Shown: piece by piece, positions 34,876 to 61,311 of the stretch
Position numbering within the stretch: the stretch's first letter is position 1
Layout: the number at the start of each line of letters is the position of its first letter
Assembly (NCBI GenBank): GCA_019914995.1
Contig: CM034127.1
Span: 9,672,001-9,736,000 of the forward strand
DNA from: Acanthochlamys bracteata
Lineage: Eukaryota; Streptophyta; Magnoliopsida; Pandanales; Velloziaceae
Direction of reading: 5' to 3'
Length of the DNA stretch: 64,000 nucleotides
Notes under the pieces: model-generated
Told to the model about the DNA's origin: nothing
The model's database searches: none
Seen by the model: the letters and a program-made list of their open reading frames with translations, nothing else
Program-made: the position numbers and the translations under genes

Positions 34876-35947
34876 TTATAGTTTAGATTTTCGTCTATCT
34901 GATGAGTGAATTAAATTAATTGGTTAATTTCCTTAGATAAATGCATTACTAGATTGACCTGTCACTGATGTATATATGTTGGTGGTAGGTCTTGCTTGGA
35001 GATTGATCTTCACAAAGGGGAAGGGAAATTTTTACATCGATCATCATCGCCGACATTAGTTCCGCAATATTGTTTTTTTTTTTTCATTTTTTTTTTCAAT
35101 TTCAGTTTCTTAGAACTGGATTTGAACCTGAAGCACTGAGAAGATTCGTAGTTTGTTATATACATTATATGGGTACCAAGTTGTTTGTAGCTAATTACAT
35201 ATTTTCCAGTCATAGATCCAACATGACATTCCAAATTATTGAAGTTTCGATCCAACATTATTGATTATATGTTCTTATTTGGATGAGAAGAACATTATTG
35301 CGAGCTAGTAACTTGGAAAAAAGAATATCAGCACAGTAAATGTAATTGACAAATTAGGTGGTATTTGAAAGTGCACGTTTATGAATAGAATTTTTTAAAA
35401 CGAAAAATATTTTTATTTTTTTTCAAAAAATAAGCTTTATTTTTAATCTTAGAAAATAAGCGATAACAAGTACAATGTATAATTTTTCTATATTTTTTAA
35501 ATTATTAAATAAATTTTATAAAATTTTGTATAAGATTTATTAAAAAATATAATATGAAATGAAATGTTGCAAAGGCAACGCTAAACGCAGCTTTGAACAA
35601 ACAGGGAAAATAATAAACGGTTAACCGTCTAGTGATACGAAATCTAAACATGTACATGCTCGGAGTTGCAAGTTTAAAATTCAAGCACCTCTAATTGCTC
35701 CTAGAGCTTAGGATCATCTTCTGGCAGAAAAAAAAAACGTTCATTCACAACTTTATCACTATATGTAGCATAGAATAAAATCCCGGAAAACAATACATTT
35801 TCTTCTTGCCTTAATTAATTGGCATTCAGGTTGCCTTGCTAGCCAATTGTTCATTCAGGAAAGATTGATCTCCCAAGTGCTGAATTCGGTCATTGTTGTT
35901 GAATTGTTTATTGTTAGAACGAGGATTGATACCCAAATATAATAAAG
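34876..35947. other. Polcalcin 3' region and repeats up to the first hAT-like element
   Basis: The first part is 3' flank of the polcalcin gene. An A/T block of MITE type lies at about 35350-35560. About 35610-35745 contains a segment with a SINE-like look (see findings). No gene was recognised. Confidence 0.4.
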
Positions 35948-36795
35948 TAGGGGTGGCAATATATGATCCGATTCAAAAATTTAATTCGAAACTGATATGT
36001 TTAATCAGAGTTAAGGTTAGAAAATTTGACCCGTATAAATATATGGATTGAGTTAGGGTTGAACGAATTTGATCCGGTTATTAAATAGATCGATCCGGAT
36101 TAACCCGAAATTAATCTACCAATCCGAAATGTCATTTTTTGAAAGAACAATTCTTAATTTTTTCTTACCGTATAATAAAATATTGGCAATAAAAATAATC
36201 GATAATAATTATTTACAAACTATTAAATTATATTATATTTATAATTAATTTTTTTATTTTTATACCTTAAAAAATAGTGTAATAATATTATCGAAAATAT
36301 TACTATGTAGGTATTTTTAATAACGAATTTAGATTTCATATAACAATTTTTATAAAAATTTTATTAGATAGATATATTTATCAAAATTTTTATCAAAATT
36401 ATTAATATGTATATATAATCATAAATTTCAACTGTTATCATATATTTTTAAAAATAAAAATAATAATTTTTTTTGGATATTTTAAGGACCGATTAAGATA
36501 TTAAGGAATGCATATTTTGTCGGACATAATTATATCTCGTCAGTAAAAATATCGTGCACTTTCATTGAAACTGATCTTATAATTTTACTGAAGCTTAAAA
36601 ATATATAATTAATAATTAATAATTTTAATTATTAAATAGGTCGATCCGAATTTGATCCGATTATTAGTATGTTAGATTAAGATTGACAATTTTGACCCGT
36701 ATAAATTTATAGATTGGATTAAGATTGAATAAATTTGACCCGATTATTAAATGGGTCGATCCGAAACCGACTACCAACCTATATTGCCACCCCTA
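35948..36795 (+). mobile_element. Non-autonomous hAT-like element, copy A
   Basis: This 848-bp element starts TAGGGGTGGCAATATATG and ends TATATTGCCACCCCTA, so its termini are inverted repeats. The flanking 8 bp are TAATAAAG (35940-35947) and TAATAAAT (36796-36803), a target duplication with one mismatch. It has no coding capacity. A direct repeat of about 100 bp lies just inside each end (about 36010-36110 and 36668-36772). Eight-bp duplications are typical of the hAT superfamily; the autonomous source is not in this window. Confidence 0.8.
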
Positions 36796-36803
36796 TAATA
36801 AAT

Positions 36804-38046
36804 GTCGAAAAATTGAATCCCTGCATGAAAGCGAAGGGAAAATACGAATTCACCGTATGAATGTGCTTTACTTCTAAAAAGGCTAGAGAAAACTCCTAAG
36901 CAAGAACTAAGCAAGACGAGAGCTTGAACTAAAGTATAAATATGCTTGCTTTATAATGTGCCAATATATTACCGTAAAAAATAGAGCCAGATAGCACCAC
37001 ATGTATAAGAATAAAAAGCAAAGTAGCTTCAAATAAAATAGAAACTCAGTTTTGCATACTTATCAAAGATCACTTTAACAGTTAGTGTGATATGTGGCAA
37101 CTCCTGAAGGAGGACTAGGCAGGACGATCTCTCGGTCAAGCAATGACAGAGGTGAAGCACATTCATCATAAAACTTAGGGCTGTGTTGGCAGTATGTTTC
37201 ACTTTGCCTTTCATTCTAAATTTTTACATTTTTTAATATTTCAAAAAATATTCTCTAGAAATTTGAAGAATAAGAATGAATTATATGTGATAAAATGTTG
37301 TCTATTTTTCAAAACTCTCAAAAGAAATTTCTTCGTAAAAAGCTTCTTAGCAGTTACTGGCATATAAGAAATCAGATTTGACGCTAGCTGACAAACAAAA
37401 TGTTACTTGCGCATAATATGAAGAAACTCACCGTTCAGTTGAGCGTTTTCATAAACTAACTTTTTAATTTTTTATTCCATATTTTATAATATATATTTTA
37501 TAAATATTTAAAAAATTTATTTTAAAATTTAAAAAATATAAAAAAATTTACATAATAAATTTTTTTTATTATATATTTTTATTTTTTAAAATAAAAAAAT
37601 AAAACTTATTTTAAAAAAAATAAAAATATTTTTTATTTTAAAAAAATATAATTTTATAAGCCCTCTCAAATGTCCAGTAAAAAAGATACAGCAGTTAGCA
37701 AATCGTGATTATAGGAAATTATATTGACAGTAGTTGACAATCATCAAATTGCCAGTGTTCCACAATATTCTCTTATGTATTTAGGCAGCTGCTGAAAGCT
37801 ATCCACTTTTATAACATGATACTTCATGACTGAAAATTCTATTCCATGTCTCCAGTTTCGCATATGTTTTACAACAAGCTTCATTAGGAAAAGAAGCCAC
37901 CATACGAGCACATTCAATAGTATCAGTACTAATTCAGGTTGCATCCTGAAGAACCGGCTGCAAAAGCTACTACATACACAATATGATACATATACAATCT
38001 CAATATCTCGTGAGTTGAACTTAAATTATGCATGCACTTAGATCCA
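36804..38046. other. Spacer and 3' UTR of VPS24
   Basis: The stretch next to 38046 (to about 37720) has normal base composition and probably includes the VPS24 3' UTR. A MITE lies at 37436-37678. The stretch 36804-37250 is unassigned; short frames in it have no recognised family. Confidence 0.4.
37436..37678. mobile_element. AT-rich MITE, Tourist-like group
   Basis: The left end contains TTCAGTTGAGCGTTTTCATA; the right end, reversed, is TGGACATTTGAGAGGGCTTA. The body is the shared A/T block. The termini are more diverged than in other copies. Confidence 0.4.
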
Positions 38047-41000
38047 TCAGGACCTCACCCTCGCAAGCCTTGCTCTCATCTCTTCCAAATCCCCATCATC
38101 ATCAATGCTCTCAGCAATTGCATCTTCCTGTAAAAATATATCAGCTCACCCTTTTTAGCAATATGTTAAAAGGCTGAGTTAATAGAAATGAAGGCAACTG
38201 TGAAGATCATTTTTATACCTCTGCAGCTCTTTCACTTGCTACAGGTTGCTTCAACTTCTCCTTTCTAACAGCATCTGGTAGTTGTGATATAGTCTCTCCA
38301 GCTATAGCAGCAAGCACCTTGTCCACTTCCTCTTCAGTCTCTTCCTCTATGTCTTCTGAATCCAGAGCAGTGTCGACAGCATCATTCACCATCTCTTCGA
38401 TGACACCCGCCTAAAATGTTGCAACACACTAATCAGTAAAGTGATAAAACTTTCCAGAAATCAAGTCAATTTATTCATACATTTTCATTGATGGCCAAGA
38501 AACCATATTAGAAATCCTAACAACTACGCAAGTTGTAAACTTATTACCACCAAAACCTAGGAACAGGCTTAGAACTACTAGAATAATAGGATATCAGTTT
38601 CCAGAAAAATCAAAGATGACATACGAGAAATCTAAGAAATTCTATGCAAGTTGTAACTTATGACCACCAAATCCATAAGATGCCATTTTACTAGATACGT
38701 GCCACATGAAGCAACCACATATCCTTTCCTGAGGAAATATCAAGTGCTAAGCAACAGTAATCATTATCTTAATGCCTAATCAATTCCCATCATAACTTTT
38801 AGTTCATATGTCACTCTGGGAGAAAACACTATAAGAATCCTTGAGATTGCCAGCAGAAACTTCTGACATAAGAGTAGAACTCATTTCGATATCAAATATT
38901 ACTAATAATAGAAAACGTCAAACTAAACAACTTCAATTAAATTAGCTTGAGAAAAGAAAGGTGGCATATGGCACCTTAGTCATTTCTTTGTTGAATTCTT
39001 GCATGGTAGCAGCAACTTCTGGAGCTTTCATAAGGCCATTGACAAGCTTCATCACTTCTCCACTCTTAGCCAAGTGTCCTACAGTCCTTGCAGTTGCTAC
39101 AATTTTTTTTTTAAATGGTTAGTATTTGGTGAAAATGTACTTTCAATAAGTGAATACACAATAAAAATCACGCAGCACTATGCAACCATTCATCTACATT
39201 TAACTATAAATGCTAACATTCGTATCACAAGCAACTTTAAGTTCCAATTGAAAAAAAAAACGATCTCAGAACCTCTGAACATCACGGTTCCAGATAAATA
39301 TCAACCTATTCCAAGTTACAATACTATCAAATGCATTGAAGATTCTCAGGGTCATTGATCCCAGCTAGTGCCCAGAATGTGAGTTTAATTAGTGCTATCC
39401 ATGATAAACTATGTACGAAATTTTCAGCTAAAAACGAAACATGCCTGATGAAAATTATAGGACAAATGTGGTACTTGTTTCTGTCTAAGTTATGAATCTA
39501 GTAGCCAAATAACTTGCCTCGATCAATTAATGTTAGAGAAAATAGACACAAACAACATGGTAATGTAAATTTGATTAGTCAATGAAAAATTTTGCAATCT
39601 CCATAGTTTAGATGTAAGGGATCCACCAGTTGTAGAAGTAGCAGTAAGTAACACTACGAAATTCTCTTACCAACCATTTCACCAAGGTGCATTGAAATTG
39701 AATTCAATTGTGCTTTGTTCTCATGAAGACGGTTCACTGCTCGTCTTGACCTCACAATCTCCTTAGCAAGCGTCTGCAGATACAGAAAAGAGTGAATTAG
39801 CACAGAAATTCTTCGTCTACTATCTATCGATCTAGCATAGATTCACATATTAGAAGACTTAATAATATCTCAAGGTATTAAAGTCACAAGGATACCTGCA
39901 TATATGGTCTCCAAATATATTGCTCTATATCAGTTGACTAATGCGTATTTATCGGTTATCAGTTAAGTAACATCTGTTAAAGTCATATGTAATCCATTTA
40001 TCGGTTAAATAACATCTAACCTCTATTCTCAGCAATAAAAACAAGTTTCTAATTGAACATAACACTGCTCCTGACTTGTTCCTGCAAAAGAAAATGTCTA
40101 AAACTCATGAAGTTCAACTAAGACCAGAATATACCAAATGCTTAAACGTAGGGATATCCTATAAAACTCGCATCTTTCTGAATACCAAAATCTAGTGAAT
40201 CCCACAAGAGTTTTAATTATTAGATGATGGGGACATTTCGGAGTGCTTATGACAAAGGATTTCTTGAATGAAGGATATTTTGAGAATTTTTTGGAACACG
40301 AGCTTGATTTTTTTGAACTAAACTTAATAATAAAATTATACATATAAAGATTGTATGATATACAATTCACTTGTACTTTCCAAAATTTAAAAAAAAAATC
40401 TACAAATTACAATAGAAGGTTTATTGGAAACATGAGAACCTTTGGAGAACGAAAAGTAGTGCCATAAGCGCTGTCAAACATCTCTGAAATAACCTTTGAC
40501 CCATTCAAAATAAACCCAAAAGCAGGACTTTTACATCTCTCCATTCAAGTAAACTCCATTAGAAGCAAAGCAATATGCATGAGCCAATTAATGATAGTGA
40601 AAACAAACATAAACAATCAATCTTGTGAGCATTATATCATCATATCGTCAACAAGTTCACCTAGAAACCAATATAATAGCATTTGCACTTTTATGATATA
40701 CATGAGCTCTAAGACCTGTTCATCTTCAATTTTTTTCTTAATACAACTCAACAACACCTAACTAAAGTGGGGGAAAAAGAAAATGTAACTACAAATCCCA
40801 GGCCAGAAACAAGCGAATTTAAGATACACGTGCATTCATTCAGAGCTTCAACAATGATGAACTGAGTACCACCCGAATTGATAGCAAATTAAGGGGGTAA
40901 CAAAGGAATTTTCAAATAAACTGGGAAACAAAATCTAACCTTGGCAGAGTTCATATCGTTCCTTTTCGCAGCATCCTTAATCGCTTTCTGCACGCTCCTC

Positions 41001-41241
41001 TCTTCCCTCTCCACATCTACACCGAATCCAAAATAATAAATCATCAAATTCAACAGCCCAACACAATCAATTAACGAATTGTTTCAGGCAATCAAATCAT
41101 GAATGCAAATACAGTTAAATAAAACTAACCTCGGATCTGTCGCTCGATGTTTCGGCCCTCTTGTCGTAGGCGCCGCTGCCACTCTCGCAACTGCTGCTGC
41201 GGCGTTGGCTTTGGCTTCAACAACCCCTTCACCCTCTCCAT
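38047..41241 (-). CDS. VPS24: VPS24 (CHMP3-type ESCRT-III subunit)
   Basis: Exons on the minus strand: 41130-41241, 40940-41016, 39671-39773, 38975-39096, 38219-38410, 38047-38127. They encode 228 residues, the expected length for VPS24. The basic N-terminal helices (KPKPTPQQQLREWQRRLRQE, then NIERQIRDVEREERSVQKAI) are followed by TLAKEIVRSRRAVNRL and a MHLGE motif. The acidic tail ends DLEEMRARLARVRS, the C-terminal MIM1 motif bound by the VPS4 ATPase. VPS24 polymerises with VPS2 on endosomes to close intralumenal vesicles of multivesicular bodies. The start at 41241 matches the family; an in-frame ATG further upstream (41400) would add a low-complexity stretch encoded by the TC/CA repeats and is rejected. 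Confidence 0.94.
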
Positions 41242-41248
41242 CCCTCCC

Positions 41249-41290
41249 GATCTCTCTCTCTCTCTCTCTCTGTCACAGACACACACACAC
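41249..41290. repeat. (TC)n and (CA)n microsatellites in the VPS24 leader
   Basis: A TC run (about 41249-41271) is followed closely by a CA run (about 41278-41290). Both lie just upstream of the VPS24 start and so are probably transcribed in its 5' UTR as GA and TG repeats. GA-rich leaders are common in plant genes. Confidence 0.85.
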
Positions 41291-41445
41291 GCAGAAGAAA
41301 GAGGAAAGAAACAAGAATCAACTTTGATTTTGGGAAAGCTAGAACTGAAATCGTTAACAATCTGAAAAGAGAACCTTTGATTAATAAAGGAATCGAACAA
41401 CTCGTTATTAAAAGTCGCTCGTTAGTTATTCTACCGAGTTACGTT

Positions 41446-41505
41446 TGGGCCGAGACACAGGCCCAGTAGTTGGTCTTGGACTTTCTATTGGGCGGCGATT
41501 GCCCA
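41446..41505. promoter_or_regulatory. Cluster of site II motifs in the VPS24 promoter
   Basis: TGGGCC at 41446-41451, GGCCCA at 41460-41465, TTGGGC at about 41489-41494 and GCCCA at 41501-41505 crowd into 60 bp, 205-265 bp upstream of the start. TGGGCC/T is the site II element bound by TCP factors and enriched in housekeeping promoters. No TATA box was seen, which fits that class. Confidence 0.55.
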
Positions 41506-41534
41506 GCCTAATGGAATCACTAGGTTCCGAGTTA

Positions 41535-41735
41535 GGATGTGTTCTTTTACACGTGACTTCTTTTATATTAAGAAGTCATTTTTAATTTATTTTTTATTTA
41601 AAAAAATATAAAAAATTACTTTCAACTTATTTTCAATATAAAAAAATATATCACTTTCAACAACATTATTTTTAAAATTTTATTTTTAAAAAATTACTTT
41701 CTAAAAATTCACTTTTAAAACTAAAAAACGCACAC
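41535..41735. mobile_element. MITE, Tourist/PIF-Harbinger-like, with TTA duplication
   Basis: The ends are GGATGTGTTCTTTT and, reversed, GTGTGCGTTTTTTA. TTA flanks both sides (41532-41534 and 41736-41738), as expected for PIF/Harbinger MITEs. The 201-bp body is A/T-rich with no coding capacity. It inserted next to the site II cluster of VPS24. Confidence 0.5.
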
Positions 41736-42059
41736 TTAGTGCTGCATAGCAAACCATACATGTTGACCGTTTAACATTTAGGATTTTTTTTTATTCGGAA
41801 GTAAGTTATTTAGAAGTAAATTACTAAATAAATTAATTACTATAAATAATATTAGAAAATAAATTAAACATTATATTATTTTTTAAAAAGAAATAAGTTG
41901 AAATGATTTTTTATATAGCTGAAAAGTGCATCGAAAATAACCATTTAGTAAAAAGAAATGAGTTATAAGGGTGAAAAAAACAACCCTTCTCATTTGATGT
42001 CAAAGTTAGGTAGACGAAATGCAAATTTCCATCTGCGGTAAGAAAGGTCCGTCAACCAT

Positions 42060-43450
42060 AGATGTCTAATTAGTTAGAATTTAAAGTTTTTAAAGAGTTT
42101 GAGTTTTATTAGAAAATTATTATTTGTTTCTTGTTATATATTAGGTTCCAATTAGATTGAATTTCTAACTCAAGATGAGCGTATAAGTTTAGCATTCTCT
42201 TCGAATGGCTTATTTACCAACTCATCGAACTCATTTTTTTCAAACTCAATTTTAATACAAAATAAATTAAAATTTTAAATAAATTATTTTCTATTAAAAA
42301 TTTATTTTTTAAAAATTTATTTTAAAGTTTACTTTTAATATAAAAACTTATTTTTTTGTTAAATATTTTTAATTTTTAATTTTAGCTTTTAAATTTACTT
42401 CTAAAAAAAATGAGTTTATCTCAAAGTAAACATGTTTATAAATTATGAGTCCTCGTTATAAATATAAGTTTCGATAGCTCATATAATTAATAAATATTAG
42501 GTTTATTTTATGTACTTTTTAATACTATTTCTAATTCATCTATTTCTCACAATGTTCAATCTATTCCTATTTTATTCATCTATCTTTTCTAGTTCATCTA
42601 CTTTTTATTTTATTGTATTTATTTTTCGTCTAGTTTGTATTCTATTCTCATCATATGTTTTTAATGTGTACCAATTCATATCGAAGGCAAATCAATTCTA
42701 TAAAGAATCGAATTTTTGCTGCACTATCATATCAAACACAAGTTATTAACATTTGTATTGACGAATCCTCATAAAGGTAAAATACATCGACATTATTGGA
42801 ATTGATCAGTGCAATCCATAATTATCTTTTATGATCAACGCTACTATATTTTTATTAGACCGCTACAAATAAGTTCACAGTTTATATCGGTCATCTTGCA
42901 TGTTGTTATTATTTTCCAAGTACTTATTTTAGTGGTATGAGCGATTTCAAATTTATGATGCATTGGCTATTGTCAACCTTGAGGACAATGTTGACTTTAA
43001 TGGAGATGAAACGTTACAGTAGTTTATGTAGGCTAATGAGTTAGGATTTGAGTTTTCTTAAAAACTTTGAGCTTTTTAAAAGTTTATTATTTATTTTTTG
43101 TTAGCTATTCCATTTGGGTTAAAGTCTTAACTAAAGATGAGTTTTAACTATAAATAAGAGGCTTAATACCTCATGTAATCAATGAACACCTATTATGACA
43201 GAGGATTGAGGACTTGAGTCAGGTGCATTTGACATTGCGAGTTGTCCTACTGAGGTCCGTAATTGCATCGAAGGAGTTAGAATTTGAATCTCAATAGATT
43301 TAAGAGCACACGAGTTTCATTAGAAGACTAGTGTTAGTATCCAAATTAGGTTAAAGTTCTAACTTTAGTTGTAGTAGAGTTAAAATTTTACTCACAAGAG
43401 AAGAGGTGTAGTTATTTAATAAAAGTGCTTGTACTCATTAAAGATTATGG
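42060..43450 (+). mobile_element. Fossil LTR retrotransposon remnants, Ty3/gypsy-like
   Basis: Three related LTR-like stretches are visible, at about 42060-42500, 43030-43200 and 43270-43450. They share a GAGTTTTATTAGAAA and TAACTAAAGATGAGTTTTA type sequence and a TATAAATA box. Before the second is ACCTTGAGGACAATGTTGA, which resembles the sequence between the polyprotein end and the 3' LTR of plant gypsy elements. The first is interrupted by a nested AT-rich MITE (about 42204-42430). The remnant is old and heavily broken, and no complete element is present. The family call is tentative. Confidence 0.35.
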
Positions 43451-46400: not shown

Positions 46401-47129
46401 ACCCCTAGTTTGATACGGATACTTTATCTGAAAATAACTTATCATAATCATAATATTAGAATATGTAGACAATATTAACGTGAGTCAATATATATGTAAA
46501 TATTCTAATTATATATATTTTTTATTTAGAAATTTTCTTACTTGTTATATATAGAGACTATATATATATTTGCATGAGTATTGATCGATTGAATGAGATT
46601 GAACTAGATTGAAATATTTTTATATATACTTACTATTACCTTCTGATATTTTGTGAAATTTTAATTCATTAAGAAAAAAGTTTCATAAATTTTATAGATC
46701 ATTCATATATGTGTGCATATGGGCTTTCAGATTTAGATAAGTTTGTTAATTCATATAAACAGCTAAAATTTGATAGAATGAACGATAAACCTTAACCTAT
46801 ATACGTGTATAAAAAGACTTGATTAAAACAGAACGCGTTAAATCTAATGCACGAACTTGCCAATATAACTATTTTAGAAAGACAGAAATTCAATCGAACT
46901 AATGCTCGTGAAGGCTGTATTTATTAATATCTATTGCTGCTCAAATTATCCTAATTTCAGCTCAATGAAATGAAGTGTCTAAAAATTATACATAACTTCA
47001 TAGCAGACTAATGCATACAAAGTTGTATTCAGAGTTTCTCCTCTAGACATTTAGGGGCTTTTTTAATTAAATTAAAATAAGTTTCGCAAAAATGATTTTC
47101 AAAAGAGTCAAATTTAGTAAGAAGTACCG

Positions 47130-47240
47130 TTCGGTAAAAATACAATTTAGAGTGGTAATTGTAACTCGTGAAGTTCGGAGTTAAATTTTGATGAAAATAA
47201 AATTTGGTATGAGTGATAATTAGAACACAAAATGACTAAT
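47130..47240. repeat. Single copy of the dispersed 76-bp-type repeat, upstream of XTH
   Basis: This stretch (with GTGGTAATTGTAACTCGTGA and AAAATTTGGTATGAGTGATAA) resembles the units of the tandem array at 50158-50440 on the other side of the XTH gene. It is an imperfect, probably older copy. Confidence 0.4.
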
Positions 47241-47940: not shown

Positions 47941-47948
47941 TATATAAA
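47941..47948 (+). promoter_or_regulatory. TATA box of the XTH gene
   Basis: TATATAAA lies 58-65 bp upstream of the start codon at 48006, which implies a short leader of about 30 nt. Confidence 0.7.
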
Positions 47949-49442: not shown

Positions 49443-51975
49443 AGCTTGAAGCCTTAAAACGTTTTTCTTTTTATTTGGTGATTGCTCCACATTCTTGCCT
49501 ACTACTATGTGGTAAACTAGTAGTCGAGGTTATCAAATTATTTTAGTTTGAGGTCTATCAGTGTTTTTACTACAAATTGTTATTAATAATAAACGAAATT
49601 GTTTGTGTTTCATGCTTGAAGTTAGAATTAAATGTTTTTAAGTTCATTTTATGAAGTACCTATAGTGGCATTTTCTGATAATGAGCTTACAACCAGGGAT
49701 TGCTTAACCAACAATCATCCTGGTCAATATAATTTACACCTACAATCTCTTCTAAAGAAGGATATCGTAGTAGTAGACCAACTAGTAACCGAACTTCTAC
49801 AACAGAGGTCATCCCTGGATGGATCTGTGAGAATAATTCCACATTGATATAGCTATATTTTGGGGGCTTATAAGGAAGGGACACCCTCGTTTAACATCCG
49901 GTTATTGAGTGGCACCCTCACGAAAAACGTACGAATTAATATAGCTATATTTGGCAGTATGTATCTTGTTATTTCCTTTTCATATCTTCATTTCAAATAA
50001 ACTACCACAAACATCAAGGCAGTTAAAAACGGACAAATTCTATAACGTTGAGACACAACTGCACTGATTTTGGGTCATTTCAGTTGTTCTTTGGCCAAAA
50101 TACAAAAACGAAAAGAGAAGTGCTCCGTGAAGGGCTTGGGTGCAAACTTCCGGAAAGTGTTCAATAATGGAGATAGTAGGAGTATAATTTAGAATGATAA
50201 CTGAAATATATGAAGTAAAATTTGAAATAAAAATTTTTGTAAAAGTGAATCTCGATTGAAAGTGAAATTTGGAGTGATAACTAAAATAAGTAAAGTATAA
50301 AATTAAGTTTTATGAAAGTAAAGTTCAATAAAAATAGAATTTGTAGTAGTAATAAAACACCTGAAGTAAAATTTGGAATGAAAATTTTTATGGAAGTGAA
50401 GCTCGACGTGAAATTGGAATTCGAAGTGGTAATCTGGATGGAGAATAAAGGTTGGTGCATTTGACACATGCTTTTAGACTCCATGAATATTTGCAGACCT
50501 GGAATTGTTCGCTTTACTGTCTTACCAGAAACTATTTGAGATAGATGAACAACTGATACAACAAAACGCCATTTCGTTGTTCCAGTGGATCGGTTGTGCC
50601 ATTCCTTTCATCTCTGACCAAAAGTTTGATCAGAATTTGAAGAGAACAAACATGACCAACCCAGCAAACAAGTGCCTGAAACTTTTTATTTTCCCATTTC
50701 CTTGATATACAAAGAATCACAGTAAGCTCCGCAAGCGTAAGTATTGGATACTGAAACCAATATAAACCCCAAAGTGCTTTTCCATTTCATTTCAAATTTT
50801 GTTTTCTAATAAATCTTTTACGGTATTCTAAAAATTTCCTTAAGATTGAAACTATAAGTAAAATACATATCGTCAAACTCTATAATGCAACATGTCTTGT
50901 ACCTCTAATAAACCTGAAAGGGCACCTAATAACGATTTAGATTGTCCCATATTCTGTTCAAGCCTTCTGTCTATCGATAGCTGTAATAACGGCATGAGAT
51001 ATAAATTAACATAATTTTGTTATTCATTAAAATGAAGCGATCAAACATATAACTCGTTACTGGCTCGTTGTGGTGGTTTTTTTTTTTTTTGGTTTTTTAC
51101 TTTTGATGTATAAGTATAGATGTTCATCCTGTTTTAGTTATTACTTATTAACTTCATAGCAAGGATATTAACATGGCATTCAAAATTTCTAGCACTTATA
51201 TATGTAAGAAAAGCAAAAAAAAGGAAACCAGTAGAAACATACTAATGATAAAACTCAACTTGAACCATCTCTCATACCACGCTATCAGTTTAAAAATTTA
51301 TCTCAAAATTATCTAGCAATATGAAGAGTTGGCTTAAAAGCCTTAGGAATAGATACTTGGGGCCTTAAAAATCTAACTTTTTCGAGAAATATAGATATAC
51401 TTGAGGCCTTAATTCAATTCTAAAACTTAAAATATTTTTTCTATAATTTTTTTCAATAAATATTCTTAAATATCTCGTTATCCAAAGGCGTGTTTATAAC
51501 TCTCTAAATTTTAATTTTTTAAATTTATTTTTAATATAGAATAAACAAAAAATTAAAATAATATTTTTTTATCAAATTTTTTAAAATTCAATTTTAAAAT
51601 TTACTATTAATATAAATTAATATAAAATTTTATTTTTTATTAAATATTTTTAATTTTTAATTTAATTTTTTAATATATTTTCTAAAAATTCAAATTCACT
51701 GACTTCAGGTAAACAAGCCCAAAGACTCCAAAGAACGTGTTTACTATAGAATAAACTCATTTTTTTAAAAATAAATTTAAAAAATAAAATTAAAAACTAA
51801 AAATATTTAATAAAAAATAATATTTTATAATTATTTTATATTATAAGTAAATTTTAAAATTGAATTTTAATAAATAAATTATTAACAAAAATAATTTATT
51901 TTAATTTTGAAGTTATTTTTTATTAAAAGTGAATTAAAAAAAATAATTTTGAAGAAATACGTAAATAAGCTCAAA
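49443..51975. other. Spacer downstream of XTH
   Basis: The first 150-200 bp should be the XTH 3' UTR. Then come a tandem repeat (50158-50440), unassigned sequence of normal composition (50440-51480), and two eroded MITEs at about 51487-51720 (ends GGCGTGTTTATA and, reversed, GGGCTTGTTTACC) and 51733-51970. No gene is recognised. Confidence 0.45.
50158..50440. repeat. Imperfect tandem repeat, about 3.7 units of 76 bp
   Basis: Units begin at about 50212, 50288 and 50363, preceded by a half unit at 50158. Each contains a variant of GAAGTAAAATTTGGAATGAA, then an AAGTGAAGCTCGA-type segment and a GAAGTGGTAATCTGG-type segment. Units have diverged considerably and include no open frame. A related copy lies upstream of XTH at 47130-47240. 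Confidence 0.6.
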
Positions 51976-52797
51976 TAGAGTTGGCAATATATGACTCGAT
52001 CTGAAATCGACCTATTTAATTAGAGTTAGGATTGAAAATTTTGACCCATATAAATATATAGGTTGGATTAGGATTGAACGAATTTGACCCGATTATTAAA
52101 TGGGTTGATCCGAATTAATTCGAAATTGACCTACCAATCTGAAATATCATCTTTTAATGGAACACTTCTTGATTTTTTCTTACCGAATAATAAAATATTG
52201 GTAATAAAAATAATCGATAGTAGTTATTTACAAACTATTAAATTATATTGTATTTATAATTAATTCTTTATTTTTATATCTTAGTAAAATAGTGTAAAAT
52301 AATACTATGTAGGTATTTTTAATGACAAATTTAAGTTTCGTATAAAGATTTTTATGAAAATTTTGTTAGACAGATATATTTATTGAAATTTTTATCGAAA
52401 TTATTAATATATATTTATAATCATAAATTTCAGATGTTATCATATATTCTCAAAAAATAAAAATAATAATTTTTTTGGATATTTTAAGGGCCGATGACGA
52501 TATTAAAAAATACATATTTTGTCAGACATTATTATATCTCCTTAGTAAAAATATCATGCACTTTTATTCAAACTGATTTTATAGTTTCGCTGAAGCTTAA
52601 AAATATAAGATTAATAATTAATAATTTTATTTATTAAATAAGTCGACCTGAATTTGATGCGGTTATTAATAGGTTGGGTTAGGATTGACAATTTTGACCC
52701 GTATAAATTTATAAATTAAATTAGAGTCAAACAAATTTGACCCGATTATTAAATGGGTCGATCAAAAATGACCCACCAATTCATATTGCCACCTCTA
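51976..52797 (+). mobile_element. Non-autonomous hAT-like element, copy B
   Basis: This 822-bp copy starts TAGAGTTGGCAATATATG and ends CATATTGCCACCTCTA. Its 8-bp target duplication AGCTCAAA is perfect (51968-51975 and 52798-52805). The body aligns with copies A, C and D throughout. It ends 140 bp upstream of the Cdc25-like start codon. Confidence 0.88.
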
Positions 52798-52853
52798 AGC
52801 TCAAAGTATAAATGAATTTGATTGGACCCGTCGACCCTTACCGCTTGGTCCGG

Positions 52854-52876
52854 TGGGCCTTAATCTTTTAAGCCCA
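52854..52876 (+). promoter_or_regulatory. Two site II motifs in the Cdc25-like promoter
   Basis: TGGGCC at 52854-52859 and AGCCCA at 52871-52876 (TGGGCT on the other strand) lie 60-85 bp upstream of the start. The spacing and motif match site II elements of housekeeping promoters. An AATTTATATG stretch at about 52893-52902 is a possible TATA box. Confidence 0.5.
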
Positions 52877-52936
52877 TTCACATAAACAAACAAATTTATA
52901 TGCCCTTTCTCTCGAGCGAAGATTCGAAGGGAAGTC

Positions 52937-55769
52937 ATGGCGCGGAGTCTCACCTACATCTCATCCGCTGAGTTCCTCCCTCTCGCTAGAAACCCTAAAA
53001 TCGCCATCGTCGATGTCAGGCAAGAAATCAATTTCAATTCGATATCCCGTCGGTTCCTTAACATTGATTCTGCTAATTGGTTGCGATTTGATTTCGTTCG
53101 GTTTAAAATTTCAGGGACGAAGAACGGAGCACCGAGGCACACATAGCTGGGTCCCATCACTACGCTAGCGACAAGTTCTCGGATCGCATGCCGGAACTGC
53201 TCCAAGCCGTTCGAGGCAAGGACACCGTTGTCTTCCACTGTGCTCTCAGCAAGGTCTCCTTATTCTATCTGTTTCTATTCTATGCTTTAAGTCAGTGTTT
53301 GATTCTTGTGTTTCGGATTCCATTTCTGTGATATTTTTGTATGGAGTTTGTGATGCATGCTTATCTATGCGTTGGTATTAGACTTTGGATTACCAAGATG
53401 ATGCTTATATATGCCGGGCTAACTGTGGTTTGATCACAACATGTCGTTTGCTTGATGTGATGAAACTAGAAGGTTGTGGTTGGAGAAATCCTGAACGGAG
53501 TTTGTACAGCTTTCTGTTCACAAAGTTCGGCATACTTGCCTGGGTTGACATTTTGCTTCATGTTCAGTATATGCAAAACGAGATTATTTGGAATCATGAA
53601 CTTAGCTGTTTCTTTTAATTTTAGGTTGATAGTTAGAGTAGCTATATGGAACCATCCCAAATATCGATTTTCCAAAAAGTTTTATACATTCTGCAGTGCA
53701 AAAGGATGTTTCCAAATATTAATTGCACATCTGCTGACTAGTTTCGAGGTTACACCTAGATTGCAAGTGTTTGTACATGTTATGGGCTTGGGAGAGTGAT
53801 TTTGAAGATTAACAATCACGGTATGGGTTGATCACTTTGTTGTTGTGGCACATGCTTTAAGGTATGGACTTTTTTGAAAGGAGACTGCTCCTGTAGTGTT
53901 CTTAGTCAAATACATAGGCCAAAAGAAGACTATAAAAAACTTCGGCACTCATGTACGACAATCTTGTGAAGTTAGTTACATGCAACTAGCTTTGGAGAAT
54001 CAAATGCATTCATGGTCATCTTTTACCTATTACTTACATGCCTTTGAGATAGCATGAGGATTATTATATTTCGAAACAATTATTATCTTTTGTGACCGAG
54101 GAAGGAAAAATTAAAAGTATCAGTTGTTAGTAGGGGTGGCAATATATGACTCGACCCGAAAACTAAACCCGAAACCGACCTGTTTAATCAGAGTTAGGGT
54201 TGAAAATTTTGACCCGTCTAAATATATGGGTTGGGTTAAGGTTAAACGAATTTGACCCGTTTATTAAATGGGTCGATCCGGATTAACCCGAAATTGACAC
54301 ATAAATCCGAAATATTATCTTTTGAAGGAACAATTCTTGATTTTTTCTTACTATATAATAAAATATTGGCAATAAAAATAATCGATAATAGTTATTTACA
54401 AACTATTAAATTATATTGTATTTATAATTAATTTTTTATTTTTATACCTTAGTAAAATAGTGTAAAATAAAAATTATAATTTTTTCGAAAGTATTACTAT
54501 ATAGATATTTTTAATGACGAATTTAGATTTCATATAAAAATTTTGTTAGATAGATATATTTATCAAAATTTTTATCGAAAATATTAATATATATTTATAA
54601 TCATAAATTTCAGATGTTATCATATATTTTCAAAAAATAAAAATAATAATTTTTTTTGATATTTTAAGGGCCGATGAAGACATTAAGAAATGCATATTTG
54701 TCAGACATAATTATATCTCGTTAGTAAAAATATCGTGCACTTTTATTCAAACTGATTTTATAATTTCGCTGAAGCTTAAAAATATAAAATTAATAATTAA
54801 TAATTTTAATTATTAAATAGGTCGATCCGAATTTGATCCGATTATTAGTAGGTTGGGTTAAGGTTGACAATTTTGATCCGTATAAATTCATGGATTGAAT
54901 TAGGGTTGAAAAAATTTAACCCAATTATTAAATGGGTCGATCCGAAACCGATCTACCAATCTATATTGCCACCCCTAGTTGTTAGGCCTTCCTTTTTGCA
55001 TAGTTTTTGAACTTGAACACGCCTCACATTTTTTGCTGCGGTATTAATGACAGTAACAAAGGTTGTGCCCAGTGTTAAGTGAAACATCTTATGTAAGAGG
55101 GATTTTGAAAAATAAGCATATGACTTTAAAGCTAACATATAATGTCTTTACCTTCTCAAACTTTACAACACAAATGAAATATGTGCAAGCAGTTTGTCTG
55201 TGTTAAAAAGAGTATATTTGAACTGCAGGTACTTTGTCATTGTTTTCGCATTATAAAAGTTTTTAATTGTGAAAGCACGAGAAACTTGTCATCTCAAATA
55301 TCTAAGAAATTTTGTGTAGCCTTATGTTTATACCATTGGATAATGGTTTAGGTGGGAGCAATAGGTGTTGCAAATTGTACCTAGTAGCACTTGTGTTGTG
55401 AAGAACATTTAGTGGACCAACTATAGTTTGGTTCATTTAATCATTCAAAATGAAACTAGATCCCTGATTATAGCTAAAGGTACTGCTGAGACGCCTGTTA
55501 TCTCCAGATGGCATTGAAATAGTTTGATACATGGCTAATCGTTATGCTTCTGCCTGTAGATGTTCATTTATTCATATTCTAGGTGTATTTATTTTCAGGT
55601 GCGAGGCCCCACCTGTGCTCGTATGTTTTTGGATTATCTGTCTGAAACAAAAGAGAGGGAAAATATTAAGAACGTTATAGTCTTGGAACGTGGCTTTAAT
55701 GGGTGGGAAGCTGCTGGCAGTCCTGTATGCCGCTGCACGGACATTCCTTGTAAAGGAGAATGTAAATAG
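52937..55769 (+). CDS. CDC25: Cdc25-like phosphatase / arsenate reductase, rhodanese fold
   Basis: Exons 52937-53019, 53115-53253 and 55599-55769 encode 130 residues. The protein closely follows Arabidopsis CDC25/arsenate reductase: [20 protein letters not shown], then the catalytic HCALSKVR (HCX5R, Cys70 and Arg76), [11 protein letters not shown] and a Cys-rich end [12 protein letters not shown] that binds zinc in the Arabidopsis protein. Reported activities are tyrosine-phosphatase activity in vitro and reduction of arsenate to arsenite. Intron 1 is of the rare GC-AG class: exon 1 ends AG at 53019 and the intron begins GCAAGA, and only this junction keeps frame with GACGAAGAACGG. Intron 2 (2.3 kb) separates the catalytic Cys from the Arg and contains hAT-like copy C. 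Confidence 0.93.
54131..54977 (+). mobile_element. Non-autonomous hAT-like element, copy C, in an intron
   Basis: This 847-bp copy starts TAGGGGTGGCAATATATG and ends TATATTGCCACCCCTA. The 8-bp target duplication GTTGTTAG is perfect (54123-54130 and 54978-54985). It lies inside intron 2 of the Cdc25-like gene, in the same orientation as transcription, and disturbs neither splice site. It is among the best-preserved copies. Confidence 0.9.
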
Positions 55770-56029
55770 AGAGAAGTGACTGAAAGTTTTATCAGATGAG
55801 TTAATGTTAGACAGCTTAAAACCACCATAGCTATTTTATCATGGTTTAGAGTGTACTGTTTGAGGTAGATTGTATCATGTAGTGAGATTCTTGATAAACG
55901 TGTGAGTTCTGAACTAGGATTCTACGACCCTCGTCACATTATTTTCAGCATAGTGATATGTTTTCTAGAACTACTCTGCCCTTTTCCTGATTTTCAGTAT
56001 AGTGATATGTTCCTTTAAGAGATGAAGAT

Positions 56030-56205
56030 TCAGATACGTGAGTTAATTTTCGGATTGATCTATTTAATAAACGGATTAAATTTGTTCAATTTTTATTTAA
56101 TCTATATATTTTTATGGATTAAAATTTTTAACTCTAACTCTAATTAAATGGATTGGTTTCGGATTGCGTTTTCAGATCGGATCATTGATTGTCATTCTTA
56201 TTTGG
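56030..56205 (-). mobile_element. Fragment of the hAT-like family, copy E
   Basis: Read on the minus strand this aligns with the first 160-170 bp of copies A-D (GATCCGATCTGAAAAC, TTTAATTAGAGTTAGAG, then AAATAGATCAATCCG). The right-hand four fifths are missing and the outer end is eroded. It is the only clear member in reverse orientation. Confidence 0.65.
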
Positions 56206-56341
56206 CGGTAGATATTGTCTAATAATAACGAAAAATTCTCTAATAAACTATTCTATAAAAAGCTTCCTTTAAGATTAATTTTTTAAGAGAAGGCAAGAGT
56301 CATCGTAGCAAGGCAATGAGTATAAAATTTTTTTATGAGCA

Positions 56342-56343
<2 letters not shown>

Positions 56344-56375
<32 letters not shown>

Positions 56376-56376
56376 T
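56344..56376. repeat. (TTA)n microsatellite
   Basis: About ten to eleven perfect ATT/TTA units in a row. Confidence 0.95.
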
Positions 56377-56491
56377 GGTTCTATATGAGTAGATTAGTTT
56401 TATATTTAAGAAAGAAAGATAAAAAAAAGTTAATATACTAGAAAGTTGTAAAATCTATTAGTTTAACTTTTTAGACTGGATTGGATATTCA

Positions 56492-56733
56492 GGGCGTGTT
56501 TACCAACACCCCTAAAATTCATTTTTCTTAAACTCAAGTTTCACATAAATACTTATAAAAATTAAAATAATTTTTTTTTATCACTAAATTTTTTTTTAAA
56601 TTCAAATTTATAACTTACTAAATATATATAATTAATATAAAATTTTATTTTTATTAAATATTTTTAATTTTTAATTTTATTTTTTAAATTTATTTCCTAA
56701 AAACTCCACTTTCTACCTCTTGGTAAACACGCC
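56492..56733. mobile_element. MITE with GGGCGTGTTTACCAA ends
   Basis: The left end is GGGCGTGTTTACCAA and the right end, reversed, GGCGTGTTTACCAA, an almost perfect inverted repeat around 242 bp of A/T-rich DNA. It adjoins the next MITE with only four bases between. Related ends occur at about 51487-51720. Confidence 0.6.
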
Positions 56734-56737
56734 TTTA

Positions 56738-56995
56738 GGAGCGTTTGGGAGTGTTTATAAAATAAAATTTTTTTAAAATAGAAAATATTTTTATTTTTTA
56801 GAAAAATTAGCTTTATTTTTTTATTTTCAAAAAAATAATAAAAATATGTAATAAAAAAATCTCACTCCGTAGAATTTTTTTATATTTTCTAAATTTTTAA
56901 TTAAAATTTTTAAATATTTATAAAATATATATTAAAAAATATAAAATAGAAAAAAATTAAAAAGCGGTTTTTGAAAAGCTGTTCCAAACGCGCCC
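56738..56995. mobile_element. MITE, Tourist/PIF-Harbinger-like, with TTA duplication
   Basis: The ends are GGAGCGTTTGGGAGTG and, reversed, GGGCGCGTTTGGAACAGC. TTA flanks both sides (56735-56737 and 56996-56998). The 258-bp body is the common A/T block of the group. Confidence 0.6.
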
Positions 56996-59900
56996 TTAGT
57001 GTAGAGCTAGATTCTTTAGATATTTTAATTTGGATTAACTATTTTGATATTGTGTCTCCACAATAGTACTATTAGAATCGATAATTTGGGAGAGCTCACG
57101 CATGTAGTAGCTTTTATTAATAATGAGTGAGTAAATTAAGAGCAGTTAATTCATATGGGGTTTTACATGATGAAAGAAGATTCAAAACAAGTTAGATTCT
57201 TATTACTAGCTCTTTGTTCAACATAAAATAAAAAAGAATTAGTTTACCAATAGTTTCAAAATATATTGGTTTAAAATTTTTAATTAGATTGAATTTTTTA
57301 GTGCAGGAGTATGACCATTTCGATGTTTAATTTTAATTGGTTTCCCTGTTGTTGTATTTTTCAATATTATTAGAAAAAACAAAGGACAAACTCCACTTGA
57401 TGCATGCGTGGTTCTTTTTAAACCTCTTTCCAAAATTTGCTTTTGTCCCTTGGAGCCAAGCAAAACAAAGGATGATATCACAAATCAGAAACCGTTTACG
57501 TTAGCAATCTTCTATTATCAATATGCCTTTAAAAACTTTTCATTGAACCTCATCAACACAAGTGGTAGTTACAAAATTCTTACTTATCCATAACCATGCC
57601 TTCCTTTCGGTGGTTGTCATAATCCATTTAACCAAAATTACTAGTAAAAAACGACCGATTGGATTGTTCTGTTTTCTTTCGAATTTTTATTTTATTAAAC
57701 AACATGCTTGGTACCGAAGAGTAGAAGTTCTTTTCAACATAGTCGTTCCATATCAAAACCAAACTCTAATTGTTGGGAAGCACATCAAGATCAACATGTT
57801 TCAGTATTTGTTTATTTTGATTAATGTGTACAACACAACGACACCAATTTAAAATTTATTTAAAATTTTTAAATATATATAAAAATTATATTTCGAAAAA
57901 TCTTATTATTATTATTTATTTATTTTTAAAATAAAAAATAATATTCATTTCAAAAAATATTTTTTAAAATAAATTTTTATAAAAAAATTTATTTTATAAG
58001 TAATCTTAAACTGGAAACAAAGCTGTGCCAAGTCAAATTAGTAAACTAAAAAATGTGCTTATATGATATAGTTCGAACAATTAGTCCCAAGTCAAGTTCT
58101 TCGACATTATTAATATAATATTTTAGATGTTTAGAGTTGGTCCCCAATTTTCCAGATATTGAATTCTGATTGAAATCTACATAACATTAAAGAACTTAAA
58201 GTGGATAGATACTTATTTCTTTTAAGAATAATAAAGAACAACTTGCTCAACATCATAGTGGAGAACTGGAAATCTTGTTCAATTGAGTTCATTCTCTTTT
58301 GCTAATATCTGAGAAATGGACCAGCTTTGAGTATTTGAAAAAGATCTCTAGTTCTCTTGTAGCATAGAGAGAGAAAGTTTTTATATTGAGGATAATTATC
58401 TGCTATTTTTGTGAAAATTTTGAATCAATATGTATGATGGTATAATAGTAAAGAAACATAATCACATATACACATATCCTTATATATGTTGAAAGACTCA
58501 TGGATATATATAGATGAATGTACCATACCAAAATAAAATGTTTAATTGTTTACATCATGCTACACAATATAAGAATACATGATGAGAAATTAATATAGGC
58601 ATTCCTCTTCTTATTAGAGACTCACACTTTCATAATCTAATCATCCGATCAAATAATTGTACAGTGATGATTGACACGTTTGATCTCTACATCCATGATG
58701 ATTGATCGAATAACAATCGTTCAATCGTTTGATCAGATAAATTTGTAAAAAAAGTGTCTATGTGGCCTATATTTCTAAATGAAAAGAGAGAGATATTAGG
58801 GGCGTGTTTCAAACGCCCATAAATTTTTTTTTTTTTTTAAATTTTGAATTTCGAACAGTTAATATATTTCAATTACATAAACAATTCAGAGTTATATTTT
58901 TATATACGGAACTCTATTTTTAATTTTTTTATTTGTATATTTTTTAATACAATTATATATTTTAAATTTTTAATATATTTCTAAAATCTATTAAAAAATA
59001 AATACTAAAATTTACTTTTATTTTATTTTTTAAAAAATTTTATATTTTATTTTTATTTTTATAAAACTCAATTACATAACATAAAAGTAGCGCGGTCGTC
59101 ATTAGCTGGTGGGAAGTGCGTCCAAGCCCTCTCTTGTCTTCTAGCGAATACTACCTGTATGTGTGAAGGTGAAAGGAGGGAGCTACCACGACCAACAGAA
59201 TATTTGAGTGCGCTTAAAATAACAGATTTTTTAAAAATTTTGAGATTTTTCATAAATAAAGTAGATCGTTTTGTCTAAATTATTATATATAATGATGTAC
59301 AGTTCACTTATCTTTTTAAAATTATTAAAGATATTTTTAAATACTACAAATTTTTTTTAAAATAAAAAGTTGAAATCAAAGAGACGTTTGAAATAAATAA
59401 AAAAAATTTCTACAATGTAATTTATTTTATGACTGCTTTTCTAAAAAAATTAAAAATTTATATAATATACAATTCATTATATAACTAAATTTTTTTATAA
59501 AATTTTAAAATATTTTATAAAATTTATTAAAATTATCTGAAATAAAAACAGCTTTATTAGCACCGCCAAACACCTTCGAAATGGTAATAAATAAAATGAA
59601 ATGAATTAGCAAAGATATCCTTGGTCCTACATGTGATATTAAGAAATTCCAATTTGTGCATATAGCTTTTGGTAACATTTAACATTGCATTCGAAATATT
59701 TATCATTATATTTTATATTTTTTAATAACTTTTTAATAAATTGTATTAATAAAATTTTCAAGATATAAAAATATTTCGTAAAGTTTTTTTATATATTATA
59801 TCTGTTAAAATTTAAACTGTGGAACTTATTTAAAAAAGTTTAAAGTATTTTTTATAACCACCGACAACCGTCTGGTCCTTCTTCTTCCGTTACGCAAAAA

Positions 59901-60008
59901 GCACGTGCCGAGACAATTGGAAGAGAGTTTTTTTGAGTCACGGGTGATGTTGACCTGCGCTAGCTATTTTGTTATTAGCTTACAACCGTCCCACTTCTAA
60001 CCATATTC

Positions 60009-60863
60009 TAGAAGCAGCAATATATGACCTAATTTAAAATTTTAATTCAAAATTGATCTGTTTAATCAAAATTATAATTGAAAATTTTGATCCGTATACA
60101 TATATGGATTAGGTTAGAATTGAACGAATTTGATCCGATTATTAAATAGGTCGATCCAAATTAATCCGAAATTAATCTATAAATTCAAAATATCATTTTT
60201 TTAAAAAATAATTCTTAATTTTTTCTTACCGTATAATAAAATATTAGCAATAAAAATAATCAATAATAGTTATTTACAAACTATTAAATTATATTGTATT
60301 TATAATTAATTTTTTATTTTTATACCTTAAAAATAGTGTAAGATGAAAATTATAATATTATTGAAAATATTACTATATAGGTATTTTTAATGACGAATTT
60401 AGATTTCGTATAAATATTTTTATGAAAATTTTGTTAGATAGATATATTTATCAAAATTTTTATTGAAATTATTAATATGTATTTTAATCATAAATTTCAG
60501 CTGTTATCATATATTTTCAAAAAATAAAAATAATAATTTTTTTTGGATATTTTAAGTACCGATAAAGATATTAAGGAATGCATATTTTGTCGGACATAAT
60601 TATATCTTGTCAGTAAAAATATCGTACACTTCCATTCGAACTGATTTTATAATTTCGCTGAAGCTTAAAAATATAAAATTAATAATTAATAATTTTAATT
60701 ATTAAATAGGTCGATTCGAATTTGATTCGGTTATTAGTAGGTTATGTTAGGATTGACAATTTTGATTCATATAAATTTATAAATTAGATTAAGGTTGAAC
60801 GAATTTGATCCGATTATTAAATAAATCGACCTAAATGACCGACCAATCGATTTTGCCACCCTA
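60009..60863 (+). mobile_element. Non-autonomous hAT-like element, copy D (oldest)
   Basis: This 855-bp copy aligns with A-C over its whole length but has eroded ends (TAGAAGCAGCAATATATG; GATTTTGCCACCCTA). The flanking 8 bp CCATATTC and TCACATCC agree at five positions, and all three differences are C/T transitions. It is flanked by MITE-rich DNA upstream of the ACR10-like gene. Confidence 0.75.
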
Positions 60864-61311
60864 TCACATCCTCCTCTTTCAAAGAAGTTTGTAATTAGAA
60901 TTTAGTATTGCATAAATTAGCAACTTACACTTATTTTACACATCAACCTCCTTGATCTTTTCTCAAATAGCAGTTCCTATATTATGATTGAAATTACATA
61001 TATATATTTTGTGAAGTGGCATTCTAATTCCAATTTGTAGATATAGTTTTCTTCATTTCTGATGTATGAAATAGTAACATTGACTAAAAATTGGCAATTT
61101 GTTTTTAAGTCGACCTTGTTTTGCAAATACTATGATTAATATTTTAGGATATAACAAATCAATCCTGCGAGATTATAATTTCAGAGTTCAACTCGTCTTC
61201 AAATTCTTCGTGGCCGAGATACTCGAAAGGATGGACGGTCTTTCGCGCTCAATTTAAGAGAAATATTTCAATCGAGTTGCACAAGCGTCCGTTGATGCTG
61301 AACTTAGATTA

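What the first reader, a model, noticed from the sequence alone, without database searches (positions are those of the whole stretch)
35940..60871. A compact family of non-autonomous hAT-like elements with four full copies
Copies at 35948-36795, 51976-52797, 54131-54977 and 60009-60863 share termini starting TAGGGGTGGCAATATA and align along their whole length. Copies B and C have perfect 8-bp target duplications (AGCTCAAA, GTTGTTAG), copy A has 7 of 8, and copy D 5 of 8. The graded decay gives a relative order of insertion: B and C young, D old. Eight-bp duplications are established for hAT transposons, but the length, ends and lack of coding make this a family I cannot name.
Basis: partly seen in the sequence, partly recalled or inferred. 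Interest (0 to 1): 0.7.

Follow-up and report, generated by a model that had tools for sequence, protein, structure and literature searches.

The report
Non-autonomous hAT transposon (MITE) family
Four short, gene-less jumping-DNA copies in this plant-like genome belong to a family of several hundred that was very probably moved by a longer hAT transposon with the same ends, found elsewhere in the same genome; it is a well-supported but ordinary kind of mobile element.

Summary
Copies A-D are full-length relatives (85.5-89.8% pairwise) with inverted ends and the flanking 8-mers as described. Of 71 curated genome copies, 59 have flanking 8-mers matching in at least 6 of 8 bases, 31 perfectly; swapped flanks reach 6 in 0.8%. 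Between copies, sequence identity falls to chance immediately outside the ends. One copy sits inside another, a natural empty site with one 8-bp duplication.

The missing partner exists. Four longer elements (4.2-5.8 kb) share the ends, have perfect 8-bp duplications and encode hAT transposase domains. One is nested in a sibling with the same signature.

The short element is not a simple internal deletion: about 60 bp (left) and 200 bp (right) match the longer elements well, a right-end module is repeated directly near the left end, and about 480 bp of filler has only short matches in them. That resembles maize Ds2/Ds1.

Verdict: new member of a known kind; interest low.

The parts
35948..36795 (+). 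Copy A, full length, 848 bp, 16-bp perfect inverted ends
35940..35947 (.). Copy A left target duplication TAATAAAG
36796..36803 (.). Copy A right target duplication TAATAAAT (7 of 8)
51976..52797 (+). Copy B, full length with small internal deletions, 822 bp; 139 bases upstream of the ATG of a rhodanese/CDC25-like gene
51968..51975 (.). Copy B left target duplication AGCTCAAA
52798..52805 (.). Copy B right target duplication AGCTCAAA (8 of 8)
54131..54977 (+). Copy C, full length, 847 bp, 16-bp perfect inverted ends; inside intron 2 of the rhodanese/CDC25-like gene (gene model read by eye)
54123..54130 (.). Copy C left target duplication GTTGTTAG
54978..54985 (.). Copy C right target duplication GTTGTTAG (8 of 8)
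60009..60863 (+). Copy D, full length, 855 bp, damaged ends
60001..60008 (.). Copy D left flank CCATATTC, putative decayed duplication
60864..60871 (.). Copy D right flank TCACATCC (5 of 8, three C/T mismatches)
54131..54190 (+). Copy C left end shared with the left end of the coding elements (52-70 bp aligned, 81-89%)
54193..54280 (+). Copy C left-side copy of the right-end subterminal module (matches 54857-54944 in direct orientation, 82%)
54300..54777 (+). Copy C filler (boundaries approximate); only short matches (up to 56 bp) in the four coding elements
54778..54977 (+). Copy C right end, 200 bp, 82.6-83.6% identical to the right ends of coding elements C1 and C3
15642..15820 (-). Degraded right-end fragment of a related element
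56008..56194 (-). Degraded left-end fragment of a related element

Best explanation
A-D are copies of a non-autonomous hAT transposon (MITE) family of roughly 0.85 kb. An hAT transposase encoded by longer elements with the same ends bound the terminal and subterminal sequences (GAYCCG motifs cluster near both ends), excised copies and inserted them elsewhere with staggered cuts that duplicate 8 bp. Shown: shared ends, exact 8-bp duplications, natural empty sites for one short and one coding element, hAT domains in the coding elements. Inferred: that this transposase moved the short elements in trans, that GAYCCG is its binding site, and that amplification was a past burst (the closest pair of the 71 sampled copies is 5.0% apart, and the longest open frame among close transposase relatives is 544 codons).
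For: Duplications: 31 of 71 copies perfect, 59 of 71 at least 6 of 8; exact at 8 bases in 31, at 5-7 or 9-12 in none, at 4 in 4; swapped-flank control 0.8% at 6 or more. Pairwise identity of the 71 copies is 0.90 and 0.81 in the first and last 16 bases but 0.27-0.29 in the 40 bases outside, 0.276 expected from composition. Left-end 19-mer: 185 exact sites against 0 for the reversed control, 746 against 3 with up to 2 mismatches; 28 of the first 30 exact sites, on C1-C2, start a MITE-type copy. Empty site: copy C1:6822346-6823200 lies in another copy, and removing it plus one duplication restores the family sequence. Partners: C3:1139894-1145654, C7:7106218-7111531, C13:5958934-5963170, C1:5377229-5383014, each with the same ends and a perfect 8-bp duplication. 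zf-BED and Dimer_Tnp_hAT on pieces of the C1 element, hAT-like_RNase-H on a piece of the C13 element; PF05699 in all four. The C1 element is nested in a sibling; joined host flanks match the element's own sequence over 112 of 112 bases. GAYCCG on both strands: 10 in the terminal 378 bp of the family majority, 0 in the middle 482 bp; base-shuffled mean 0.12, max 3 in 2000.
Against: No mobility was observed and no other genome of the species or a relative was available. In the coding elements read, the transposase frame is split between frames or by stops, by introns or decay. The 335-aa middle piece of the C1 transposase matches no Pfam family at E 0.01 and no PDB chain at E 1. Similarity at the ends is only about 80-89%, so the actual source of transposase could be a lost or unread relative. 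The filler has no known source. 12 of 71 copies, D included, match in 5 of 8 or fewer. Of 30 hAT-domain loci held with 1.5 kb flanks (L009-L038), only 4 show right-end similarity, though ends of longer elements lie outside such flanks.
Confidence: 0.93

Rival explanations
1. The short family was mobilised mainly by a different, unread or extinct hAT lineage, and the coding elements found here merely share conserved ends.
For: End identity is only about 80-89% and the filler is not found at length in the four coding elements. Many other hAT loci exist (150 scored of 316 first-look candidates for PF05699), and locus L022, whose transposase is about 32% identical to the C1 piece (C3:19403), also shows right-end similarity (109 bp, 80%).
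Against: The closest-ended transposase group found has the same 16-bp left end (one mismatch in the C1 copy) and 8-bp duplications in all four members read; 28 of 30 end-word sites lead to the short family.
Confidence: 0.2
2. The copies are spread by segmental duplication or are an ordinary dispersed repeat rather than a transposon.
For: Three of the four window copies lie within 9 kb of each other.
Against: Flank identity between the 71 copies is at chance right outside the ends, 31 of 71 have a perfect duplication of their own, and the nearest relatives of A, B, C and D among the 71 lie on other contigs (C1, C12, C12, C7), not next to each other.
Confidence: 0.02
3. The element is a simple internal-deletion derivative of the coding element.
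For: Both ends are shared with it. The left alignment to C1 and C13 can be extended weakly to about 180 bp (69%), and short filler matches exist: copy C 302-353 with C13 (78.6% over 56 bp, E 8e-6), copy C 329-353 with C7 (96% over 26 bp, E 3e-5), copy C 460-527 with hAT locus L037 (78.6% over 70 bp, E 3e-6).
Against: About 480 bp of AT-rich filler has no longer match in the four coding elements, and positions 61-151 match the right end of C1, C3 and C7 at 85-90%, better than any left end.
Confidence: 0.1

Closest known systems
Maize Ds2 and Ds1 (non-autonomous partners of Ac)
   Same: 8-bp duplications, short shared terminal repeats, subterminal repeated hexamers, about 200 bp or less of shared end plus filler unrelated to the autonomous element; 331 Ds1 copies in B73 (passages of PMC3260210).
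   Different: Different inverted end (16 bp here, 11 bp in Ac/Ds), different motif (GAYCCG here, AAACGG in Ac), one common 0.85-kb form with a directly repeated right-end module near the left end.
Plant hAT MITEs such as BniHAT-1 and BniHAT-2 of Brassica nigra
   Same: 666-673 bp, 12-25 bp inverted ends, 8-bp duplications, 70-75% AT, 331-434 copies (passages of PMC7385995); here about 0.85 kb, 16 bp, 8 bp, 75% AT, 746 left ends with up to 2 mismatches.
   Different: Sequence relationship not tested; Repbase and P-MITE are not among the tools.
Rice nDart1/aDart1
   Same: Non-autonomous hAT element with an autonomous partner in the same genome (start of the abstract of PMC4585910 in the listing; table passage of PMC12595863).
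   Different: nDart1 is active; no activity is shown or suggested here.

Membership tests
hAT superfamily | 8-bp target site duplication | tested here: met
   31 of 71 perfect, 59 of 71 at least 6 of 8; empty sites
hAT superfamily | short terminal inverted repeats (10-25 bp, as stated in a passage of PMC3942097) | tested here: met
   16-bp perfect inverted ends in A and C
hAT superfamily | transposase with hAT dimerisation domain, BED zinc finger and hAT RNase-H fold in the partner | tested here: met
   PF05699 E 9.6e-32 and PF02892 E 2.8e-8 on pieces of the C1 element, PF14372 E 3.8e-23 on a piece of the C13 element; on the C1 element PF14372 is just below its cut-off (26.7 of 27 bits)
hAT superfamily | autonomous element of 2.5-5 kb (passage of PMC3942097) | tested here: inconclusive
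   4.2, 5.3, 5.8 and 5.8 kb: three of four are longer; inserts inside them were not looked for
hAT superfamily | clustered subterminal motifs | tested here: met
   10 GAYCCG in the terminal 378 bp of the family majority, none in the middle 482 bp; that they bind transposase is inferred
MITE | short, AT-rich, non-coding, multicopy, inverted ends (passages of PMC7385995) | tested here: met
   median 858 bp in the main group, 75% AT, longest stop-free stretch 69 codons in A-D, 746 left ends with up to 2 mismatches
MITE by internal deletion of its autonomous partner | whole sequence found in the partner | tested here: not met
   strong match only over about 60 bp left and 200 bp right, plus a module from the right end; filler has matches of at most 56 bp in the four coding elements read
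hAT group Ac, Buster or Tip | transposase phylogeny and target consensus (nTnnnnAn for Hermes in a passage of PMC10368747; nnnTAnnn for Buster is recalled) | tested here: inconclusive
   31 perfect duplications: nTnnnnAn 5 (3.4 expected), nnnTAnnn 0; A at position 6 in 18 of 31 (10.9 expected); no tree with reference transposases was built
Active transposon | near-identical copies, insertion polymorphism, intact transposase | tested here: not met
   closest pair of the 71 sampled short copies 5.0% apart; coding frames split in the elements read; polymorphism could not be tested. The nested coding pair is closer (97-99%), so a coding element may have moved later than the sampled short copies did

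The most novel reading that the evidence does not exclude
The short family is a re-engineered element: it combined a left tip, a second copy of the right-end motif module placed next to that tip, and foreign filler, so that all ten GAYCCG motifs point the same way, whereas the left ends of the coding elements carry both orientations. This altered end arrangement could explain why it reached hundreds of copies while about 22 loci of the coding element are seen, making it a test case for asymmetric end recognition by BED-domain hAT transposases.
Probability: 0.15. Interest if true: 0.45.

Novelty: new member of a known kind. Interest (0 to 1): 0.2.

Why it matters
It gives a non-autonomous/coding pair for a plant-like genome, with natural empty sites and a filler-type make-up parallel to maize Ds elements. 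It also shows that eight-base duplications are too short to rank insertions by age. It is useful for annotation of this genome rather than surprising in kind.

Tried and rejected
Ranking A-D by duplication decay: rejected. Deletion-derivative origin: disfavoured. Source of the filler: the interior of copy C gave 40 long matches, all 90% or more, from 40 scored of 1386 first-look candidates, so a diverged source could not appear; the interior 21-mer has 300 sites against 1 for the control, of which the first 100 (contigs C1-C8) are listed; none of those lies in the coding elements on C1, C3 and C7, and C13 is beyond the list. Empty site in the flanks of other copies: of 79 spanning matches 77 belong to the nested copy C1:6822346; one (C1:5266269) I judge a self-match of its own right flank; one (C18:6729847 with window 51518-51650, 70.7% over 140) was not followed. 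Target consensus: inconclusive. PDB match for the transposase middle: none at E 1. Text search for the 12-base end word: 3 listed papers contain it; by title and start of abstract they concern neurology, a tea WRKY gene and forensic genetics; I did not open them. Name of the species: not determined.

Rows dropped: of 80 rows, 9 were left out of the 71 (three overlapping projections at C1:5566000-5566128, two at C1:6824721 and 6824799, C1:5374225, C1:6627822, C3:7612867, C2:6001291) as truncated, rearranged or misplaced; their flanks scored 1-4 of 8, so 59 of 80 is the figure without dropping. Sampling is biased to well-preserved copies: the 41 best matches to copy C, the first 30 of 185 exact end-word sites and 8 more end-word sites picked by hand from C3-C9, with overlaps. 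Of the 16 coding places asked for, four were read in full.
Full report
What was checked. The gene around copies B and C (ATG at 52937, stop at 55767-55769, read by eye) encodes a rhodanese-like protein whose best PDB match is 1t3k, E 3.3e-56, labelled dual-specificity tyrosine phosphatase (that 1t3k is Arabidopsis CDC25 is recalled). I therefore take the genome to be a plant's.

The four copies are real. A 35948-36795, B 51976-52797, C 54131-54977 and D 60009-60863 align end to end, 85.5-89.8% identical over aligned bases. A and C have perfect 16-bp inverted ends. None has a stop-free stretch over 69 codons.

The family. Copy C finds 41 long matches in its own genome, itself included, from 40 scored of 2394 first-look candidates; the best other one is 91% identical, and the true number is larger. 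The left-end 19-mer has 185 exact sites with 0 for the reversed control, and 746 against 3 with two mismatches. Of the first 30 exact sites, all on C1 and C2, 28 begin a MITE-type copy, one begins a coding element (L042) and one a rearranged copy (L043). At about 0.85 kb each, 746 ends would be about 0.3% of the genome (inference; some are fragments or coding elements).

Duplications. I curated 71 copies with flanks. 31 have identical flanking 8-mers, 20 match in 7, 8 in 6, 2 in 5, and 10 in 4 or fewer. Exact duplications occur at length 8 (31 copies), at length 4 (4 copies) and at no other length from 5 to 12. With flanks swapped among copies, 6 or more matches occur in 0.8% of pairs. Mean pairwise identity between copies is 0.90 in the first 16 and 0.81 in the last 16 bases, and 0.27-0.29 in each 10-base block outside, where composition alone gives 0.276.

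Natural empty sites. Copy C1:6822346-6823200, with ATTCTAAG on both sides, lies inside another member of the same family. Joining its flanks with one duplication kept gives a sequence that runs through the junction in many other copies, for example 87.5% over 96 bases with copy D and one gap opening; keeping both duplications lowers this to 80.8% over 104 with two gap openings. This shows directly that the insert is the element between the inverted ends and that one 8-mer was duplicated.

The coding partners. Four longer elements carry the same ends and perfect 8-bp duplications: C3:1139894-1145654 (5761 bp, CTTTTGGA), C7:7106218-7111531 (5314 bp, GTTTGCTT), C13:5958934-5963170 (4237 bp, GATATAAT) and C1:5377229-5383014 on the minus strand (5786 bp, GGGATAAT). 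All four carry PF05699. Pieces of the C1 element match zf-BED and Dimer_Tnp_hAT, a piece of the C13 element matches hAT-like_RNase-H (E 3.8e-23); on the C1 element the last is just under its cut-off, and its 335-aa middle piece matches no Pfam family. The C1 element is itself inserted in a sibling: the host's flanks, joined with one GGGATAAT, match the inserted element's own sequence at 112 of 112 positions. So the longer elements moved by the same reaction. By my count 22 loci are 50-100% identical to the 335-aa piece (several are fragments, one to three rows each; 120 of 232 first-look candidates scored), and the next group is near 34%. The longest open frame listed among these is 544 codons (C10:5099853, with one TGA inside the match); the Ac transposase has 807 residues (passage of PMC3260210). 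In the elements read, the transposase is split between frames or by stops. Introns could account for part of this.

Anatomy of the short element. Compared with the coding elements, the first 52-70 bp match their left end and the last 200 bp their right end, at about 80-89%. With C1 and C13 a weaker left alignment (69%) runs on to about position 180. Positions 61-178 of the majority sequence match positions 738-845 in direct orientation (84.7%), and positions 61-151 match the right end of C1, C3 and C7 at 85-90%, so I read this stretch as a copy of the right-end module. The middle, about positions 180-660, has only short matches in the four: the best are 56 bp at 78.6% (copy C with C13) and 26 bp at 96% (copy C with C7); hAT locus L037 has a 70-bp match at 78.6%. 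These are AT-rich stretches and I give them little weight. GAYCCG motifs number 10 in the terminal 378 bp and none in the middle 482 bp, against a base-shuffled mean of 0.12. All ten lie in one orientation in the majority sequence, whereas the left ends of the coding elements carry both. As a single strand (DNA parameters), copy C folds better than 20 of 20 dinucleotide shuffles (z -4.4), with the ends paired and an internal palindrome, as expected of an inverted-repeat element.

Age. The 71 copies fall into a main group (59) and a more diverged group (12) by transversions from the majority. Changes are mostly C-to-T or G-to-A relative to the majority, for example 74 against 6 reverse transitions in D and 55 against 13 in B. 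I infer decay of methylated cytosine. Transversions put A at 1.65%, B 1.46%, C 1.42% and D 1.52%. By total divergence C is the least changed of the four and B and D the most. The closest pair of the 71 is 5.0% apart, which argues against recent movement of the short family, though sampling was partial; the nested coding pair is closer (97-99%).

Comparison with the known. Passages of PMC3260210 describe maize Ds2 as about 200 bp of Ac ends around filler, and Ds1 as a short element with a common filler; both give 8-bp duplications and can be moved by Ac. The present family works like these. Brassica hAT MITEs are of similar size, AT content and copy number (passages of PMC7385995). Passages of PMC10368747 report that Hermes BED domains bind the left end and not the right end; that makes the right-end module near the left end here worth a binding test, but nothing here shows an effect. 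I could not search Repbase or P-MITE, so a named relative may exist. Placement in the Ac, Buster or Tip group is open.

Verdict. The finding is correct in substance, the proposed partner search succeeded, and the result is an ordinary, well-evidenced non-autonomous hAT family. The one unusual point, the composite left end and unexplained filler, has precedent in maize Ds elements.

Noticed in passing
window 52937-55769: Gene for a 130-aa rhodanese/CDC25-like protein (best PDB match 1t3k); copy B ends 139 bases upstream of its ATG and copy C lies in its second intron (gene model by eye).
   Followed up: partly
G000:C1:5375503-5386544: Coding hAT element inserted in opposite orientation into a sibling, producing a near-palindrome with arms 97.4-98.7% identical over 1.7 and 3.5 kb; transcripts through it could form long hairpins (inference).
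   Followed up: partly
G000 C1:13529435, C2:13014379, C3:7806737, C13:7370153: Long open hAT-like frames (660-715 codons, no stops in the match) 33-34% identical to this transposase piece: other hAT families or domesticated transposase genes.
   Followed up: no
window 35948-60863: Four family copies in 25 kb, although the interior 21-mer has only 300 sites in 195.5 Mb; their closest relatives among the 71 lie elsewhere, so this looks like clustered insertion, not duplication. The window was picked because of it, so significance is uncertain.
   Followed up: partly
G000:C4:5817849 and C4:5818693: An hAT dimerisation domain about 700 bp from an interior word of the short element; could be chance or a coding relative with the filler. 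The stretch could not be fetched.
   Followed up: no
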